Below are positions 40,572 through 55,692 of a stretch of 64,000 nt of DNA, piece after piece. Each line of letters opens with the position of its first letter. Position 1 is the first letter of the stretch. The notes beneath the pieces are model-generated. The model had not been told where the DNA came from. It saw only the letters and a list, made by a program, of their open reading frames with translations, and ran no database searches. The stretch is from a virus, in the IMG/VR virus record IMGVR_UViG_3300047510_001751, positions 124,001 to 188,000 of that record. One strand, 5' to 3'. A program made the translations under genes and the position numbers.

Positions 40572-40735
40572 AGGATTCCAACTTCCTTTAAGTAATTACG
40601 ATAGCGCATAAATCGACCAAGACTGGGTTGGTTCACAACTTGTAACTGATGGCAAATTTCACAATAGCACAACCAATCATACCATGGTGTGCTAGGATCT
40701 AATACGTGATACTTTATTTCTGATTGCTTCGACAT
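40568..40735 (-). CDS. 55-aa protein with Cys-rich centre
   Basis: Begins MSKQSEIKYHVLDPSTPWYD, then WLCYCEICHQLQ (three Cys, one His; possible metal site), then a basic helix (GRFMRYRNYLKEVG). It overlaps the halogenase 3' end by 44 bases in another frame. Function unknown. Confidence 0.6.
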   Translation of the reverse strand: MSKQSEIKYHVLDPSTPWYDWLCYCEICHQLQVVNQPSLGRFMRYRNYLKEVGIL

Positions 40736-42110
40736 AATCAAGATGATGTGTTGTGTCAGTTTTGTATTCTGGTTGCTTGAAGGGTAATACCTCAGAAGAT
40801 ATGTCCCAATTATGATCTTTAGCCGCTATAGTGTGCATAAACATAATATAATCATCATGATCAATATATTGATCACCTAAAAGATTTATAATATGTTCTT
40901 GATAATCATATTTTACATTTTTATGGTCTATCCAAAATCGAGTATCATCACGTTGACATGTTTTATATTGAGTTAAAATAAAAGCTGCCCAAAACTTGTA
41001 TCGACTTTCAATCCTATCATTAATAACTTCCCTCAAACTATTCACAATATTTTTATCTGGAATATCTTTCCATTGTTGTAAAATAGGTTTTAAATGATTA
41101 ATGACATCAATTGTCAATGTTAGCCCAGGAGCATCTAATGGTTCTAGAAATCCATTAGCTAAACCAAGAGTACAGTAATTTTCGTGATATGTTTTTTTAT
41201 TATATCGAGGATAAAAATTAACGAGCCTCGGTTCTATATCTACACCAACATCATTAATAAACTCTTCTCTGGCTCTATCTTCACTGACATAGTTAGAACT
41301 AAATGTATACCCTGTACCAATTCTCGAATAAGTTGGTGTTATCCATCTCCACCCATACTTCATAGTTTTTGCTACTGTGTATGGATGAAATTGATTTCTT
41401 TTATCAGTATATTCTAGTGGATATACAAAAGCTTTGTTTGTTAACAATACATCAGACAAATCAACATATTCTTCATTCAAAATATCATTGTAACCAGTGG
41501 CAATAATATAATAATCTGCTGTGATTACGGTGTCTTTATCAGTAATAAGTCTCTCAATTTTATCATTTGTTTTTTCTACTTTAACAATAGTTTCTGCTAA
41601 TGTAGAAACATGTTTGTGCTTCTTACAATGCTTAGAAATAAAATTAATATACTTACCAGCATCAAAATGCCATGATTTTGGATAAAAGAAATCAGATTTA
41701 AATACGTGATTATCTTTTACTGTATCATTTAAATTACAGGCAATAAGATCATTGATTGAAACATCTTTCGGTTTATTTGCCAAAAGTCTATAAAACATAG
41801 TTGTATGAATGCTCATGGCATTCGATGACCTATTGTTTTTGAAATTGTGAATAAAGTTGTTTTTAGACCAGTTCTTATAATAGACACCATACTTCACAGC
41901 AGCATCGGATTCGGCAATAAAAATATCATGGTTTACACCAATTTCTTGATGAAAACCATTTAACTTAATTGTATTGGATTCCCCAACCCCAATGCTAGGA
42001 ATATGGGGAGAACCTACAATTATAATTTCACTAAAAAACTCTTTTTTAACTGCCATAGCAGCACAAGCCATCCAGCCTGCTGCCCCAGTTCCAACAATAC
42101 AGAGTTTCAT
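40692..42110 (-). CDS. flavin-dependent tryptophan halogenase family protein
   Basis: The ATG giving MKLCIVGTGAAGWMACAAMA overlaps the upstream stop (ATGA) and places the FAD motif GTGAAG at residues 7-12. The family sequence GVGESNTIKLNGFHQEIG follows, then the segment AVKYGVYYKNW containing the candidate catalytic Lys73. The diagnostic WxWxIP motif appears as WRWITP near residue 253, with Ile replaced by Thr. GLANGFLEPLDAPGL matches the family's second flavin region. Known members chlorinate or brominate tryptophan using FADH2. Cyanophages carry related genes; substrate and role in infection are not known. Confidence 0.88.
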   Translation of the reverse strand: MKLCIVGTGAAGWMACAAMAVKKEFFSEIIIVGSPHIPSIGVGESNTIKLNGFHQEIGVNHDIFIAESDAAVKYGVYYKNWSKNNFIHNFKNNRSSNAMSIHTTMFYRLLANKPKDVSINDLIACNLNDTVKDNHVFKSDFFYPKSWHFDAGKYINFISKHCKKHKHVSTLAETIVKVEKTNDKIERLITDKDTVITADYYIIATGYNDILNEEYVDLSDVLLTNKAFVYPLEYTDKRNQFHPYTVAKTMKYGWRWITPTYSRIGTGYTFSSNYVSEDRAREEFINDVGVDIEPRLVNFYPRYNKKTYHENYCTLGLANGFLEPLDAPGLTLTIDVINHLKPILQQWKDIPDKNIVNSLREVINDRIESRYKFWAAFILTQYKTCQRDDTRFWIDHKNVKYDYQEHIINLLGDQYIDHDDYIMFMHTIAAKDHNWDISSEVLPFKQPEYKTDTTHHLDYVEAIRNKVSRIRS

Positions 42111-42328
42111 AGTTTTCCGCCTACTGTTCCTTCGTGTTGTTTGGTTTCTGGAAATCCTTCTTGAAGCCATTTAAGATAGCATCGAGTAGCATTAACACAT
42201 TGTTCTTCTGTGAGAGAAGTGATGATGGGTTTCTCGTCTTTGTCAAAAGAATGCCAAAGTCCATAGTTAGTTTGTTTTAAATAAAACGCCCCCTCGTCAT
42301 AAAAAATTGGCTCTTGCTGGTTGCTCAT
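42107..42328 (-). CDS. 73-aa early protein
   Basis: The ATG giving MSNQQEPIFYDEGAFYLKQT has AAGGAGT upstream. Continues YGLWHSFDKDEKPIITSLTE, then CVNATRCYLKWLQEGFPET. Coupled to the halogenase by ATGA, so it may be a cofactor-handling or helper protein, but no motif supports that. Confidence 0.62.
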   Translation of the reverse strand: MSNQQEPIFYDEGAFYLKQTNYGLWHSFDKDEKPIITSLTEEQCVNATRCYLKWLQEGFPETKQHEGTVGGKL

Positions 42329-52278: not shown

Positions 52279-52288
52279 TTATTTATTT
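52279..52288 (-). promoter_or_regulatory. late-promoter-like site at a stop codon
   Basis: AAATAAATAA on the minus strand includes the TAA stop of the zinc-ribbon gene and precedes the 141-aa gene by about 16 bases. The same word precedes the 674-aa gene. Confidence 0.4.
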
Positions 52289-52434
52289 TGGGCTCCAACC
52301 TTTTTCATTTCCTTCGAGCAATCATTACAATAATAAGAAAATCCAGATTTAAAAGCCTTTACTATTTGGTAATGATCTTTATCAAGTGGCTTTTCAATTC
52401 CACATCGAGAACAGATTCTAGTATCACCACTCAT
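52279..52434 (-). CDS. 51-aa zinc-ribbon protein
   Basis: The ATG giving MSGDTRICSRCGIEKPLDKD overlaps the upstream stop. CSRCG and CNDCS form a four-Cys zinc ribbon with a 24-residue spacer that includes HYQIVKAFKSGFSYY. This is the pattern of small zinc-finger proteins often encoded beside HNH endonucleases. Two genes downstream of the HNH/Dam operon. Function unknown. Confidence 0.68.
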   Translation of the reverse strand: MSGDTRICSRCGIEKPLDKDHYQIVKAFKSGFSYYCNDCSKEMKKVGAQNK

Positions 52435-52600
52435 CTTTTTCCAACCTACGAAGAAGTTTGAGTTCTTTATAGAGTTCTTTGATTTGCTGATAAGCTTCTT
52501 CTGGAGAAATTTTATCAGACACTTCAAGACCAGCAATAAGAGCTACTTTATCCCCGAAGCGAGCAAGGGCTCGTTCGAAATGGGAAAGATTTTCGTACAT
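52424..52600 (-). CDS. 58-aa helical protein
   Basis: Begins MYENLSHFERALARFGDKVA, continues ISPEEAYQQIKELYKELKLL. Helical with a basic end. It starts ten bases after the methylase stop and overlaps the zinc-ribbon gene by 11 bases. Function unknown. Confidence 0.6.
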   Translation of the reverse strand: MYENLSHFERALARFGDKVALIAGLEVSDKISPEEAYQQIKELYKELKLLRRLEKDEW

Positions 52601-52609
52601 AGAGTTACC

Positions 52610-53449
52610 TCAATCAAAAAACAATTCTAGCACACTTTTGGGTTTTGGCTTCGGATGTTCTGGTTTCTTGACAATAATTAGCTCTGTCTTGTCGTACCGT
52701 TTGGTTCCAGACATCTGGTAAGGAAACGTAAGATACTTAAACTCGGTCCAACCTTCATACAAGTTACGAACACTTTCGCTATTGTCATACGACATAACAA
52801 AGCCACCACGATGAGACTTTAAGATCTCAGCAAACTCTTCGTGATCAAATGTTTTGTGGAGTTCGCCATCTTTGCCATAATAATGACTCACGGTTTCGTA
52901 GTATGGTGGATCGAGATACATGAAATCATCTACATGCTTAGGGATAGTATCAAAGCAACTACCGTGACTGAAGCTAAAATTAGGATTATAGAACTTCCTG
53001 AGCTTCTCAATACCAACAAGACGAAACTCGGCACGAGAACGTACAGTGGAACATCCAATCTTACCGCTATAAGAACCCTTAATGGCAATATAAAATGCCC
53101 AAGCACGAGTAAACTTGTCCTCGTGATCAAGCAGTGGCAGGAAAGATTTGTAGTGATCGCTGTCCTCCAAGGGATAATGTTTGGACACTTCATCAGCAAG
53201 ACGATCCCCCCCTTCACTTGTCAAAATTTCCCAGAAATCAGCAAGAGAACGGAAAATATCATATGCTTGTACTTTGATTCCACGAGACGCTAAAAGCATC
53301 TCAACAGAACCACCTCCAAGAAAAGGAGAAACAACATAGTCTACCCCAGGATAAACATCCTTGATAATGTCAATGATCTCATTTTTCATCCTGTTCTTGC
53401 CACCAGCGTAGCGATACAGGGAATGGTTGGTCACTTTAGATGGGGCCAT
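52610..53449 (-). CDS. dam: Dam-type DNA N6-adenine methyltransferase
   Basis: At 279 aa it is near T4 Dam (259 aa). The N-terminal motif RYAGGKNRM (residues 13-21) and PFLGGGSVE (42-50) form the S-adenosylmethionine site. The catalytic DPPY is at residues 180-183 (YLDPPYYE). These are the motifs of the D12/alpha class. T4 Dam and E. coli Dam act on GATC; target choice here is inferred, and GATC is not obviously avoided in the window. The gene overlaps the HNH gene end by 19 bases. Confidence 0.9.
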   Translation of the reverse strand: MAPSKVTNHSLYRYAGGKNRMKNEIIDIIKDVYPGVDYVVSPFLGGGSVEMLLASRGIKVQAYDIFRSLADFWEILTSEGGDRLADEVSKHYPLEDSDHYKSFLPLLDHEDKFTRAWAFYIAIKGSYSGKIGCSTVRSRAEFRLVGIEKLRKFYNPNFSFSHGSCFDTIPKHVDDFMYLDPPYYETVSHYYGKDGELHKTFDHEEFAEILKSHRGGFVMSYDNSESVRNLYEGWTEFKYLTFPYQMSGTKRYDKTELIIVKKPEHPKPKPKSVLELFFD

Positions 53450-54417
53450 GAATAGTTGTTTCGAACGATGCTGTTGTAAAACTTTTCCCTATTATAACCT
53501 GGATTGATGTGGTTTGACAACTCAATGATCTCCATGTTAAACAGGGCGTAGTCCTCACGCTGGATTTGACCGTTGAGGTAGTTGCTCCTGAACAGTCTAG
53601 CACACTGGTAAATCTCTCGTGCTAGGTCAGGATCTCCGAACAGGTGCTCGGCAGCTACGGTGTTGAGAATGTCCACATAGTTGCCTTGAGTGCCGCCTGC
53701 TCTTTTAATGCCAGAAGTTTTTCCAATACGAAATTCACTCAACGAAGACATACCAATGTTACGCCACACATACTTATCGTATTTTGCTGTGGTACGAATG
53801 AGCCAATACTGACACAGTTCATGCTCACTCATCGAAAGAATTTCGGCTTTCATCTTATGATTACGCTTCACAGCGTCTTTCATAGATTTATACCAGATGT
53901 TATATTCCATCTCTCCCATTTCATATCGACGTTCACAACGTTCAATGAAATTTTTGGCAGACTGCTTCTTGTTTTCGTTGATGTTGGCAAGAACAAGAAC
54001 AATATTCTCTGGACGATCTCCAGCAGCAGAATCAATATGCTCTACCTGAAAATCAAGAATGTGATACGGACCATCGCCACTGTAAGCACAGCAACGATCC
54101 TGGTTCAAATACATCTGAGTAATCATGATGCCTCTGGCTTCTGTAGGGTTAGCACCAGGAGCACTAATTGTGTCTGTAGCAGGATCGTAGTACCCAGCCA
54201 AAAGTTGCTGACCAGACTTACGAATATCTGCTTGCTCTTCTTTGGTGAAGGTAGCGTATGCTTGAGCAGCAGATTCCCAGGAAAAATCATTAACCTTAGC
54301 CTGGGAAATAATAGCATCGGCAGGACCAGTGATAATGTCCTTACGAGCAACTACACCTTCAAGTTGTTTGAAAGTAAGTAGCTGATCCTTGTAATCAATT
54401 GAACGTTTGAGAGTCAT
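53431..54417 (-). CDS. HNH endonuclease-like protein
   Basis: The nuclease core lies at about residues 105-155: RCCAYSG, then FQVEHIDSAAGDRPENIVLV and NINENKK. This follows the HNH pattern C-x-x-x-G ... x-E-H-I ... N ... N-x-x-K with His127, Asn138 and Lys150 as likely active-site or metal residues. The rest (328 aa in all) is helical. The gene is ATGA-coupled to the helicase upstream and overlaps Dam downstream. It could be a homing-type enzyme, but the fixed coupling argues for a joint function. Confidence 0.8.
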   Translation of the reverse strand: MTLKRSIDYKDQLLTFKQLEGVVARKDIITGPADAIISQAKVNDFSWESAAQAYATFTKEEQADIRKSGQQLLAGYYDPATDTISAPGANPTEARGIMITQMYLNQDRCCAYSGDGPYHILDFQVEHIDSAAGDRPENIVLVLANINENKKQSAKNFIERCERRYEMGEMEYNIWYKSMKDAVKRNHKMKAEILSMSEHELCQYWLIRTTAKYDKYVWRNIGMSSLSEFRIGKTSGIKRAGGTQGNYVDILNTVAAEHLFGDPDLAREIYQCARLFRSNYLNGQIQREDYALFNMEIIELSNHINPGYNREKFYNSIVRNNYSWPHLK

Positions 54418-55640
54418 CGTACATCAATGGCGGGTTGACCTTGAACAAAAATGGTGTCCACGACTTCTTCCAGACGACGCTGGGTTTTCTTGCCGTAGTT
54501 CTTGAAGACTGGCACAGTGACGAAACCAGTGGGCTTTCGGTACATAGCGAAGTTTCCTGCCTCAATCTTACCACAGGCAACGTCCTTGGCGTCGTCCTTG
54601 TTAAGACGGATGACACGACCAATGGTTTGTGCCATTTCCACAATTGGCAGGTTACGAAGCAGGATGGTGTGGGTCAGACCATGAACATTGATACCTTCAG
54701 ACAGGATGCTGTAGTGAAAAATGATAAACTTACGGTTAGGATCTTGCCCCCAGGTGTTGAAGGTGTCGAAGAAAGTCTCACGATCAACTTTAGTTTGATT
54801 TACATAAGCACCAAACTTACTGGTGATATGAAGCACATCAAAACCACGCTCAGCCAGCTCAGAAAGGACGCTGGTACGGGCCAGCATCTGCCACAGTACC
54901 TTGCTGCTAGGAGCAGCCACAAGCACCTTCTGGGCGTTCCTAGAGTCCAGTCCGTCGATCATATCAATCAAGGTGCTAGCATCGTTGTCAGCAGCACTCA
55001 GACCCTTCTGGCGTTCAAAGTCAACCTCATGAATTTGAATCGTGGGAGGAAGGATGTTGCCTTGCTCAACCAGTTCAGGAGCAGAAATATTGGAGATAAC
55101 CTGACCAAACACAATCTTGTTGTTCATGCCAGTGCCCAGCGAAGAACGACGATGCTTGGGCGTGGCAGTAAAGTAATAGTAGTTGGTAGCATTACAGGAT
55201 GCTACAGAATCAAAAAAGTCTACCCGTGTAGCGTTGTGTGCCTCATCGTAGTAAGCAACGTCAACATTAATTTCTGACTCGTTTACACGACGAAGCGAAT
55301 TGTATGTAGTAAAAATGAGCTTATGATTATCAACAACTTTATTCCAAGCAGCAATCACACCAGGATTAGTAGTGCTCTTGTGGTGAGTCTCGCCACTGTG
55401 AACGTGAAGAACATTAGCGAAATCAATGTGCTCCAAAAACTCGCTAGACAGTTGCTCTGCCAGGAGAATACGGGGGGCACAAATAAGAATGGTGAGAGGA
55501 GTGCTAGACTCGTTCATACGACGAATAGCATCATAAATCATGATGAGAGTCTTGCCAGCGCCAGTAGGAGCGATGATCTGCCCAAACTGGTGCTTGATCA
55601 TGGCGGCAAGGCTCTGCTCTTGTTGAGGGCGGAGTTTCAT
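54414..55640 (-). CDS. SF2 DNA helicase/translocase
   Basis: Walker A APTGAGKT at residues 24-31, DEAH at 132-135, FTATP at 157-161 and QTIGRVIR at 338-345 define a superfamily-2 helicase of the UvsW/type I-III restriction subunit type. It has 408 aa and starts directly with the Q-motif region (RPQQEQSL), so it lacks the N-terminal DNA-binding domain of T4 UvsW (502 aa). It heads a three-gene operon with HNH nuclease and Dam. A terminator-promoter element precedes it. Confidence 0.88.
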   Translation of the reverse strand: MKLRPQQEQSLAAMIKHQFGQIIAPTGAGKTLIMIYDAIRRMNESSTPLTILICAPRILLAEQLSSEFLEHIDFANVLHVHSGETHHKSTTNPGVIAAWNKVVDNHKLIFTTYNSLRRVNESEINVDVAYYDEAHNATRVDFFDSVASCNATNYYYFTATPKHRRSSLGTGMNNKIVFGQVISNISAPELVEQGNILPPTIQIHEVDFERQKGLSAADNDASTLIDMIDGLDSRNAQKVLVAAPSSKVLWQMLARTSVLSELAERGFDVLHITSKFGAYVNQTKVDRETFFDTFNTWGQDPNRKFIIFHYSILSEGINVHGLTHTILLRNLPIVEMAQTIGRVIRLNKDDAKDVACGKIEAGNFAMYRKPTGFVTVPVFKNYGKKTQRRLEEVVDTIFVQGQPAIDVR

Positions 55641-55663
55641 GTCAAAGGCGTTTCAATACAGAT

Positions 55664-55692
55664 AGTATCTTATAAAAAATGGGGGTGGTCAA
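55664..55692 (-). promoter_or_regulatory. terminator-promoter element (promoter part)
   Basis: TTGACC, 17 bp, GATACT. The -35 box is in the loop of the hairpin; the spacer contains the T-tract. It reads into the helicase operon. Confidence 0.72.

What the first reader, a model, noticed from the sequence alone, without database searches (positions are those of the whole stretch)
52610..55692. Helicase-HNH-Dam operon: possible compact restriction-modification-like or anti-host module
An SF2 translocase without the UvsW N-terminal domain, an HNH nuclease and an adenine methylase overlap each other by a few bases and share one promoter set off by a terminator. This combination (motor, nuclease, protecting methylase) resembles the parts of type I/III restriction systems but with three separate chains and no specificity subunit. 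In a lytic phage it could degrade host or rival phage DNA while Dam marks its own. The zinc-ribbon and helical genes next to it may be accessory.
Basis: partly seen in the sequence, partly recalled or inferred. Interest (0 to 1): 0.65.

Follow-up and report, generated by a model that had tools for sequence, protein, structure and literature searches.

The report
Phage-borne restriction-modification pair targeting YGCR
This virus of cyanobacteria carries a DNA-cutting enzyme gene next to a DNA-marking enzyme gene, and viruses that carry the pair have almost erased one short DNA word (YGCR) from their own genomes, which points to a private restriction-modification weapon and reveals its likely target; the neighbouring helicase is an ordinary gene that is not part of it.

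Summary
The three genes are real: SF2 helicase (54414-55640), HNH nuclease (53431-54417) and D12-class DNA methylase (52610-53449), all on the minus strand, overlapping by 4 and 19 bp. The trio is not a unit. The helicase is conserved in 445 phage records, and the pair is absent beside it in every annotated cyanophage and in the nearest relatives I inspected. HNH plus methylase is the unit: they are adjacent in all HNH-bearing contigs examined, including a phage of another family where no helicase adjoins. In two closely related phages the HNH is swapped between nearly identical helicase and methylase genes. Decisive new evidence: in contigs with the pair, YGCR (TGCA, CGCA/TGCG, CGCG) is 10-20 times rarer than in relatives without it, while all other NGCN words are not. 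The association holds in three helicase-tree lineages, in 8 of 8 same-metagenome comparisons, and in a second phage family. Best reading: a phage-encoded, orthodox type II-like restriction-modification pair recognising YGCR, with an interchangeable nuclease and a genome purged of its own sites. Cleavage and methylation are untested. CGCG contains no adenine, so either the methylase modifies cytosine-N4 or the target is narrower.

The parts
53431..54417 (-). HNH nuclease gene (328 aa), proposed restriction endonuclease
   Evidence: ORF; HNH family by relatives; AlphaFold pLDDT 87; weak fold match to GmeHNH 4h9d; adjacent to the methylase in all HNH-bearing contigs examined
53965..54090 (-). HNH active-site stretch, residues 110-151 (CAYSG...FQVEHID...NIVLVLANINENKK); C110, H127, N138, N147 invariant
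   Evidence: alignments A1, A3, A6
52610..53449 (-). D12-class DNA methyltransferase gene (279 aa), proposed cognate methylase
   Evidence: Pfam PF02086 2.8e-19; PADLOC MTase_II 5.9e-35; TIGR00571 dam only 55.9 bits against a cut-off of 114.85
52901..52912 (-). methylase catalytic motif IV, DPPY (residues 180-183)
   Evidence: alignments A2, A4
53021..53080 (-). probable target-recognition stretch KGSYSGKIGCSTVRSRAEFR (residues 124-143); shared by the YGCR-depleted phages, replaced by a KGAFSGDLGHTS type in related methylases of non-depleted phages
   Evidence: alignment A4 together with word counts; role as recognition stretch is inferred
54414..55640 (-). SF2 helicase gene (408 aa): conserved cyanophage gene, neighbour only, not part of the pair
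   Evidence: 445 phage records; present without HNH-methylase beside it in Sf-FR1, S-PM2, S-H9-1, S-H9-2, S-CREM1, S-SZBM1, Sf-FP1, L197, L198, L199
55681..55697 (-). terminator-like hairpin upstream of the helicase, GGGGGTTGACCACCCCC-ATTTTTT
   Evidence: 5 found, 3.0 expected in shuffles
52424..52600 (-). DUF7219 gene (58 aa), helicase neighbour in phages with and without the pair
   Evidence: PF23856 4.7e-19; directly after the helicase in Sf-FR1
52279..52461 (-). small zinc-ribbon-like gene (60 aa or longer), also present in close relatives; no link to the pair found

Best explanation
The HNH nuclease and the D12 methylase form a phage-encoded, orthodox type II-like restriction-modification pair whose target is the degenerate palindrome YGCR (TGCA, CGCA/TGCG and probably CGCG). 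During infection the methylase marks the phage's YGCR sites while the nuclease cuts unmarked YGCR in other DNA: the host chromosome, a rival phage, or both. Because fast-replicating phage DNA is not always fully methylated, sites in the phage's own genome are costly and have been purged to about 8% of expectation. The nuclease half is interchangeable (HNH alleles, a distant HNH, and in one phage an unidentified protein), while the methylase and its recognition stretch are kept. The helicase is a bystander whose 3' end is the insertion site. Shown: the gene pair, its independence of the helicase, the nuclease swap, purifying selection, word depletion tied to the pair. Inferred: cleavage, methylation, which base is methylated, and the biological purpose.
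For: (1) HNH and methylase are adjacent in every HNH-bearing contig examined, including L089 where no helicase adjoins. (2) L017 vs L018: helicase mostly 85-99% and methylase mostly 96-99% nt identity, HNH between them mostly 46-70% nt (46% aa): a nuclease swap under a fixed methylase. (3) Of 136 four-letter words only CGCG, TGCA and CGCA separate 25 HNH+ from 30 HNH- contigs (0.08/0.11/0.12 vs 0.66/0.66/0.70; no other word beyond a ln ratio of -0.34); TGCA O/E per contig 0.00-0.22 vs 0.48-0.94, no overlap (eight contigs with low TGCA but no pair were set apart beforehand, see evidence against). (4) Raw counts: TGCA 0.09x, CGCA 0.10x, CGCG 0.05x, all other NGCN at least 1.1x; flank-independent. 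(5) Helicase tree: the trait needs at least 3 changes, and each lineage with it is depleted. (6) Nearest relatives without the pair are not depleted (TGCA: L197 0.68, L198 0.64, Sf-FR1 0.67). (7) Same-metagenome pairs: 8 of 8. (8) Another phage family: G016 (HNH+methylase) has YGCR words at ranks 2, 4, 5 of 136; G017 (methylase + other partner) at ranks 1, 2, 3; relatives' baseline about 0.9. (9) 120 kb of the genome outside the window: TGCA 0.08, CGCA 0.12. (10) No deamination signature: TGTA 1.05x, TGTG 0.96x. (11) Published: among R-M types only orthodox type II sites are commonly avoided in phage genomes (PMC6286503).
Against: CGCG has no adenine, yet DPPY D12 enzymes are by convention N6-adenine methylases; in the window's own lineage CGCG is also absent from relatives without the pair, so the CGCG part rests on other lineages. 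Eight contigs without the pair show low TGCA (L210, L211, L218, L220, L256, L257, L261, L275), but with normal CGCA, so another cause exists for TGCA alone. In the second family L306 and L383 are depleted but no methylase was found in their fragmentary contigs. Independent transitions are few (3 in cyanophages). No homologue of known specificity, and no bacterial relative of the HNH was found. Word depletion cannot separate the effect of nuclease and methylase.
Confidence: 0.72

Rival explanations
1. Host-driven avoidance: these phages infect hosts with a YGCR-specific restriction system, purge the sites for that reason, and carry the methylase (and HNH) as independent counter-measures.
For: Phages commonly avoid host type II sites (PMC6286503); other avoided words in this genome (CCGG, GGCC) probably have such causes; some pair-less phages avoid TGCA alone.
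Against: A protecting modification relaxes avoidance (coliphages with hydroxymethylase avoid 2.4% of host sites against 55.8% without it, PMC6286503), the opposite of what is seen. The same link appears in two phage families and in 8 of 8 same-metagenome pairs. Phages with other D12 methylases are not depleted.
Confidence: 0.12
2. The pair acts, but the nuclease relies on site purging rather than on methylation: HNH is a YGCR-cutting host-DNA degrader and the methylase has a different target.
For: CGCG cannot be N6-adenine methylated; residual sites are few (about 90 in 184 kb, derived).
Against: About 90 unprotected sites should still be lethal to the genome; depletion tracks the methylase type even when the HNH is 22% identical (L066) or replaced (G017).
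Confidence: 0.1
3. Helicase-HNH-methylase three-protein type I/III-like machine.
For: Overlapping genes in this lineage.
Against: The helicase occurs without the other two in most cyanophages; HNH+methylase occur without an adjacent helicase in G016; type I/III sites are hardly avoided in phage genomes (PMC6286503), yet YGCR is.
Confidence: 0.03
4. HNH is a homing endonuclease inserted beside an unrelated methylase.
For: Free-standing HNH genes in T4-like phages are often homing enzymes (general knowledge).
Against: Same place and partner in the cyanophages, both gained or lost together at least 3 times, a short-word genome footprint, strong purifying selection; only weak similarity to PHROG HNH families.
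Confidence: 0.03

Closest known systems
Chlorovirus restriction-modification systems, e.g. CviJI (RGCY)
   Same: Virus-encoded, nuclease and methylase adjacent, short degenerate GC-core target, aquatic photosynthetic host; there the nucleases are packaged and host DNA is degraded within minutes (PMC7019647).
   Different: Eukaryotic algal viruses; here a tailed phage, predicted YGCR rather than RGCY, D12-class methylase, a nuclease family without known relatives, and strong purging of the own site. Homology of the HNH to CviJI was not tested.
Marseillevirus GATC restriction-modification system
   Same: Virus-encoded nuclease plus methylase; proposed use is exclusion of rival viruses (PMC7253447).
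   Different: GATC target, amoeba host, no host DNA degradation; GATC is not avoided here (562 seen, 590 expected).
Orthodox type II R-M systems of bacteria
   Same: Separate nuclease and methylase genes side by side, short palindromic target, nuclease diverging faster than methylase, site avoidance.
   Different: Carried by T4-like phages; interchangeable nuclease; no bacterial homologue of the nuclease found.
Cyanophage Dam (S-PM2, P-SSM2, Sf-FR1 and others)
   Same: D12 methylase of cyanophages, about 31% identical.
   Different: Elsewhere in the genome, not paired with this HNH; carriers tested are not depleted in YGCR.
S-TIM5 AEZ65730 (552 aa, annotated as virion structural protein)
   Same: Distant relative of the HNH (30% over 137 aa), lying next to a DNA methylase gene.
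   Different: The neighbour is a C5-cytosine methylase (PF00145) on the opposite strand; longer protein; no YGCR depletion.

Membership tests
Orthodox type II restriction-modification system | Nuclease and methylase as separate chains encoded together | tested here: met
Orthodox type II restriction-modification system | Both enzymes recognise the same short sequence | tested here: inconclusive
   YGCR footprint tied to the pair and to the methylase type; recognition itself not measured
Orthodox type II restriction-modification system | Target sites avoided in the carrying genome (typical, not obligatory) | tested here: met
Orthodox type II restriction-modification system | Nuclease cuts unmodified and spares modified sites | not testable with these tools
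   needs purified proteins
Type I or type III restriction-modification system | ATP-driven translocase as an obligatory subunit, inherited with the other parts | tested here: not met
   helicase conserved without HNH/methylase; G016 has the pair without an adjacent helicase
Type I or type III restriction-modification system | Specificity (HsdS) or Mod subunit with its own recognition domain | tested here: not met
   none among the neighbours searched
Dam (GATC) methylase | Score above the curated TIGR00571 cut-off | tested here: not met
   55.9 bits against 114.85
Dam (GATC) methylase | GATC specificity | not testable with these tools
   GATC is not avoided, which neither shows nor excludes methylation
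HNH endonuclease | HNH motif and beta-beta-alpha metal fold | tested here: met
   relative L066 above the Pfam HNH_4 cut-off, invariant motif, predicted fold with a weak match to 4h9d
UvsW helicase | N-terminal DNA-binding domain plus motor | tested here: not met
   match to UvsW (2oca) only from its residue 134 on; a separate UvsW-like gene of 487 aa exists
Homing endonuclease | Intron-borne or free-standing gene inserted at its own target, independent of a methylase | tested here: not met
   fixed partner and place; pair gained or lost together

The most novel reading that the evidence does not exclude
A modular phage weapon: one methylase (possibly a D12-fold enzyme that methylates cytosine-N4 at YGCR, since CGCG has no adenine) is combined with exchangeable nucleases, including a non-HNH protein in G017. 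The phages use it against host or rival DNA and have purged their own genomes of the site. The same logic, with other recognition stretches, may explain further avoided words in phage genomes.
Probability: 0.35. Interest if true: 0.82.

Novelty: new variant of a known kind. Interest (0 to 1): 0.72.

Why it matters
Type II restriction-modification pairs are regarded as bacterial defences; virus-borne ones are best known from algal and amoebal giant viruses. Here a T4-like cyanophage group carries one, and the genome gives away its predicted target before any experiment. It makes two questions directly testable: whether phages restrict host or rival DNA with their own type II enzymes, and whether a phage purges its genome of the target of a weapon it carries itself. 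The word-footprint comparison (with and without a gene pair, on a tree) could assign targets to other phage-encoded nuclease-methylase pairs. The nuclease family is not covered by the profile libraries searched and is a possible source of a frequent cutter with YGCR specificity.

Tried and rejected
Helicase as part of the system: rejected. GATC/Dam specificity: no GATC signal. CTCTGA, a 6-letter word depleted in HNH+ contigs: rejected as linked, because it is equally absent from several pair-less relatives. TGCA alone as target: replaced by YGCR, since contigs without the pair but low in TGCA keep CGCA. Mutation by cytosine deamination: no excess of TGTA/TGTG. Bacterial relatives of the HNH: none in genome contigs (35 pattern matches, none confirmed); a distant HNH of the family (L089) had no match in plasmids. 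Bacterial relatives of the methylase exist at 26-36% identity; their neighbours were not analysed. Structure of the alternative partner in G017 (phrog_27790, with a DGRTR/DGYNR motif reminiscent of ParB-like nucleases): model useless (pLDDT 34), so its nature is unknown. Prediction that depleted L306 and L383 carry the methylase: not testable, their contigs end short of the corresponding place. PDB sequence search with the HNH: no hit.
Full report
WHAT IS THERE. The window is 64 kb of a 190 kb virus record. Its relatives are T4-like cyanophages. On the minus strand lie a helicase (54414-55640), an HNH protein (53431-54417) and a D12 methylase (52610-53449), overlapping by 4 and 19 bp. A terminator-like hairpin precedes the helicase. 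The HNH protein itself has no Pfam hit, but its relative in L066 passes the Pfam HNH_4 cut-off, the C..(E/D)H..N motif is invariant, and the predicted fold is confident (pLDDT 87) with an HNH core that weakly matches GmeHNH. The methylase has DPPY and belongs to MethyltransfD12, but falls well below the Dam subfamily cut-off.

THE HELICASE IS NOT PART OF IT. The same helicase is encoded in 445 phage records. In Sf-FR1 it is followed directly by DUF7219, and in S-PM2 by a short gene of the T4-like set. L197 and L198, whose helicases are 90% and 88% identical to the window's, have no HNH or methylase beside it; L197 ends soon after the helicase, L198 does not, and there the next gene overlaps the helicase stop. 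The held record of L198 has neither gene anywhere. A UvsW-like gene of 487 aa with an N-terminal domain sits elsewhere in the window's genome. Conversely, contig G016, from another phage family (GroEL, phrog_405 polymerase), has HNH plus methylase without an adjacent helicase.

THE PAIR IS A UNIT WITH A REPLACEABLE NUCLEASE. Every HNH-bearing contig examined has this methylase directly downstream where the contig reaches. Between L017 and L018 the helicase is mostly 85-99% and the methylase mostly 96-99% identical in DNA, while the HNH between them falls mostly to 46-70% (46% of amino acids). In L066 the same slot holds an HNH only 22% identical to the window's. In G017, a relative of G016 (65% identical polymerase), a related methylase follows an unidentified protein (phrog_27790). 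More distant methylases (about 60%) have yet other neighbours. HNH and methylase are both under strong purifying selection (dN/dS 0.036 and 0.026).

THE FOOTPRINT. In the window TGCA occurs 10 times where 207 are expected. I compared 25 contigs with the pair and 30 cyanophage contigs without it. Of all 136 four-letter words only three separate the groups: CGCG (0.08 vs 0.66), TGCA (0.11 vs 0.66) and CGCA/TGCG (0.12 vs 0.70), which together are YGCR. Eight pair-less contigs with low TGCA had been set apart before this comparison; looked at afterwards, they keep normal CGCA. Raw frequencies agree: YGCR words fall to 0.05-0.10 of the level in pair-less phages, every other NGCN word is at 1.1 or above, and the flanking bases do not matter. 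The rest of the genome gives the same picture; in window plus 120 kb about 90 sites remain where about 1080 are expected (derived).

CONTROLS. (a) Tree: on the helicase tree the pair needs at least three gains or losses, and all three lineages with it are depleted. (b) Nearest pair-less relatives keep TGCA at 0.64-0.68 and CGCA at 0.57-0.87. (c) Eight metagenomes contain both kinds of phage; in all eight only the phage with the pair is depleted. (d) Some pair-less phages avoid TGCA, but keep CGCA, so they differ. (e) Phages with other D12 methylases, for example Sf-FR1, S-H9-2 and Sf-FP1, are not depleted. (f) In the G016/G017 family the YGCR words rank 2, 4, 5 and 1, 2, 3 among 136 words. Among 80 polymerase relatives the YGCR ratio is mostly about 0.9, the exceptions being G016 itself, L306 and L383 (plus the short L367). 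None of 25 relatives' records holds the methylase, but the L306 and L383 fragments end before the corresponding place, so that prediction stays untested. (g) No deamination signature.

WHAT IT MEANS. Only orthodox type II R-M targets are commonly avoided in phage genomes, and a protective modification relaxes avoidance of host sites (PMC6286503). Avoidance that appears together with a nuclease-methylase pair is therefore best explained by the pair's own nuclease acting on incompletely methylated phage DNA. The methylase stretch KGSYSGKIGCST is shared by the depleted phages and is different (KGAFSGDLGHTS) in related methylases of phages that are not depleted, which suggests that the methylase reads YGCR.

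OPEN POINT. CGCG contains no adenine. In the window's own lineage CGCG is also missing from pair-less relatives and says nothing, but in the third lineage (0.13 vs 0.77) and in G016/G017 it follows the rest. Either this D12 enzyme methylates cytosine-N4, or CGCG is avoided for another reason and the target is YGCA/TGCR with N6-adenine methylation. One methylome run decides.

COMPARISON. Closest in working: chlorovirus R-M systems such as CviJI (RGCY), used to degrade host DNA (PMC7019647), and the marseillevirus GATC system, proposed to exclude rivals (PMC7253447). Which of the two purposes applies here is unknown; host degradation seems natural for a lytic phage on a GC-richer host, but this is inference. 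A distant HNH relative in S-TIM5 also lies next to a methylase gene, a C5-cytosine one, and is annotated as a virion protein, a hint that such nucleases may be packaged. In the literature searched I found no description of this pair; many subscription papers are outside that library.

Noticed in passing
window and L291-L296: CCGG is entirely absent (0 seen; 79 expected in the window and 158 in the other 120 kb, both strands counted) and GGCC is at about 0.22; these avoidances are not linked to the HNH-methylase pair and probably reflect host restriction.
   Followed up: partly
L249, L243, L279, L280, L277 against L115, L022, L209: RGCY (AGCT, AGCC, GGCC) is strongly avoided in many T4-like cyanophages (0.01-0.3) but not in S-CRM01, S-TIM5 or L209 (0.9-1.1); not cleanly tied to possession of a Dam-like methylase.
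   Followed up: partly
L197, L198, L199, L021, L205, L212, L216, L219, L280, L023 and most HNH+ contigs: The word CTCTGA/TCAGAG is nearly absent in a broad set of cyanophages irrespective of the pair; it contains the type III site CAGAG that PMC6286503 lists as avoided.
   Followed up: partly
L210, L211, L218, L220, L256, L257, L261, L275: Cyanophage contigs without the pair that avoid TGCA but not CGCA: a different, TGCA-specific pressure.
   Followed up: no
L093:1866-4993: A 761 aa helicase-like protein and a 286 aa unidentified protein sit directly upstream of a related methylase: possibly another restriction-like partner set.
   Followed up: no
L097:3842-4843 and L111:3800-4888: Proteins of phrog_27790 with a DG-x-x-R motif (ParB-like by eye) lie upstream of related methylases, where the nuclease sits elsewhere; structure prediction failed.
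   Followed up: partly
L022:4431-6089 (S-TIM5) and L115:5134-7212 (S-CRM01): Long proteins of phrog_3561 contain a region related to this HNH; in S-TIM5 it is annotated as a virion protein and lies beside a C5 methylase gene.
   Followed up: partly
L116:3606-8674 (S-CREM2): A cyanophage with an HNH protein annotated Cas9-like, a gene annotated restriction endonuclease EcoRI and a DNA adenine methylase within about 5 kb: perhaps another phage-borne R-M locus.
   Followed up: no
window 40692-42170: A tryptophan-halogenase-like gene (PF04820, 8e-72) lies in the window; a halogenase is also annotated near the helicase in S-SZBM1.
   Followed up: no
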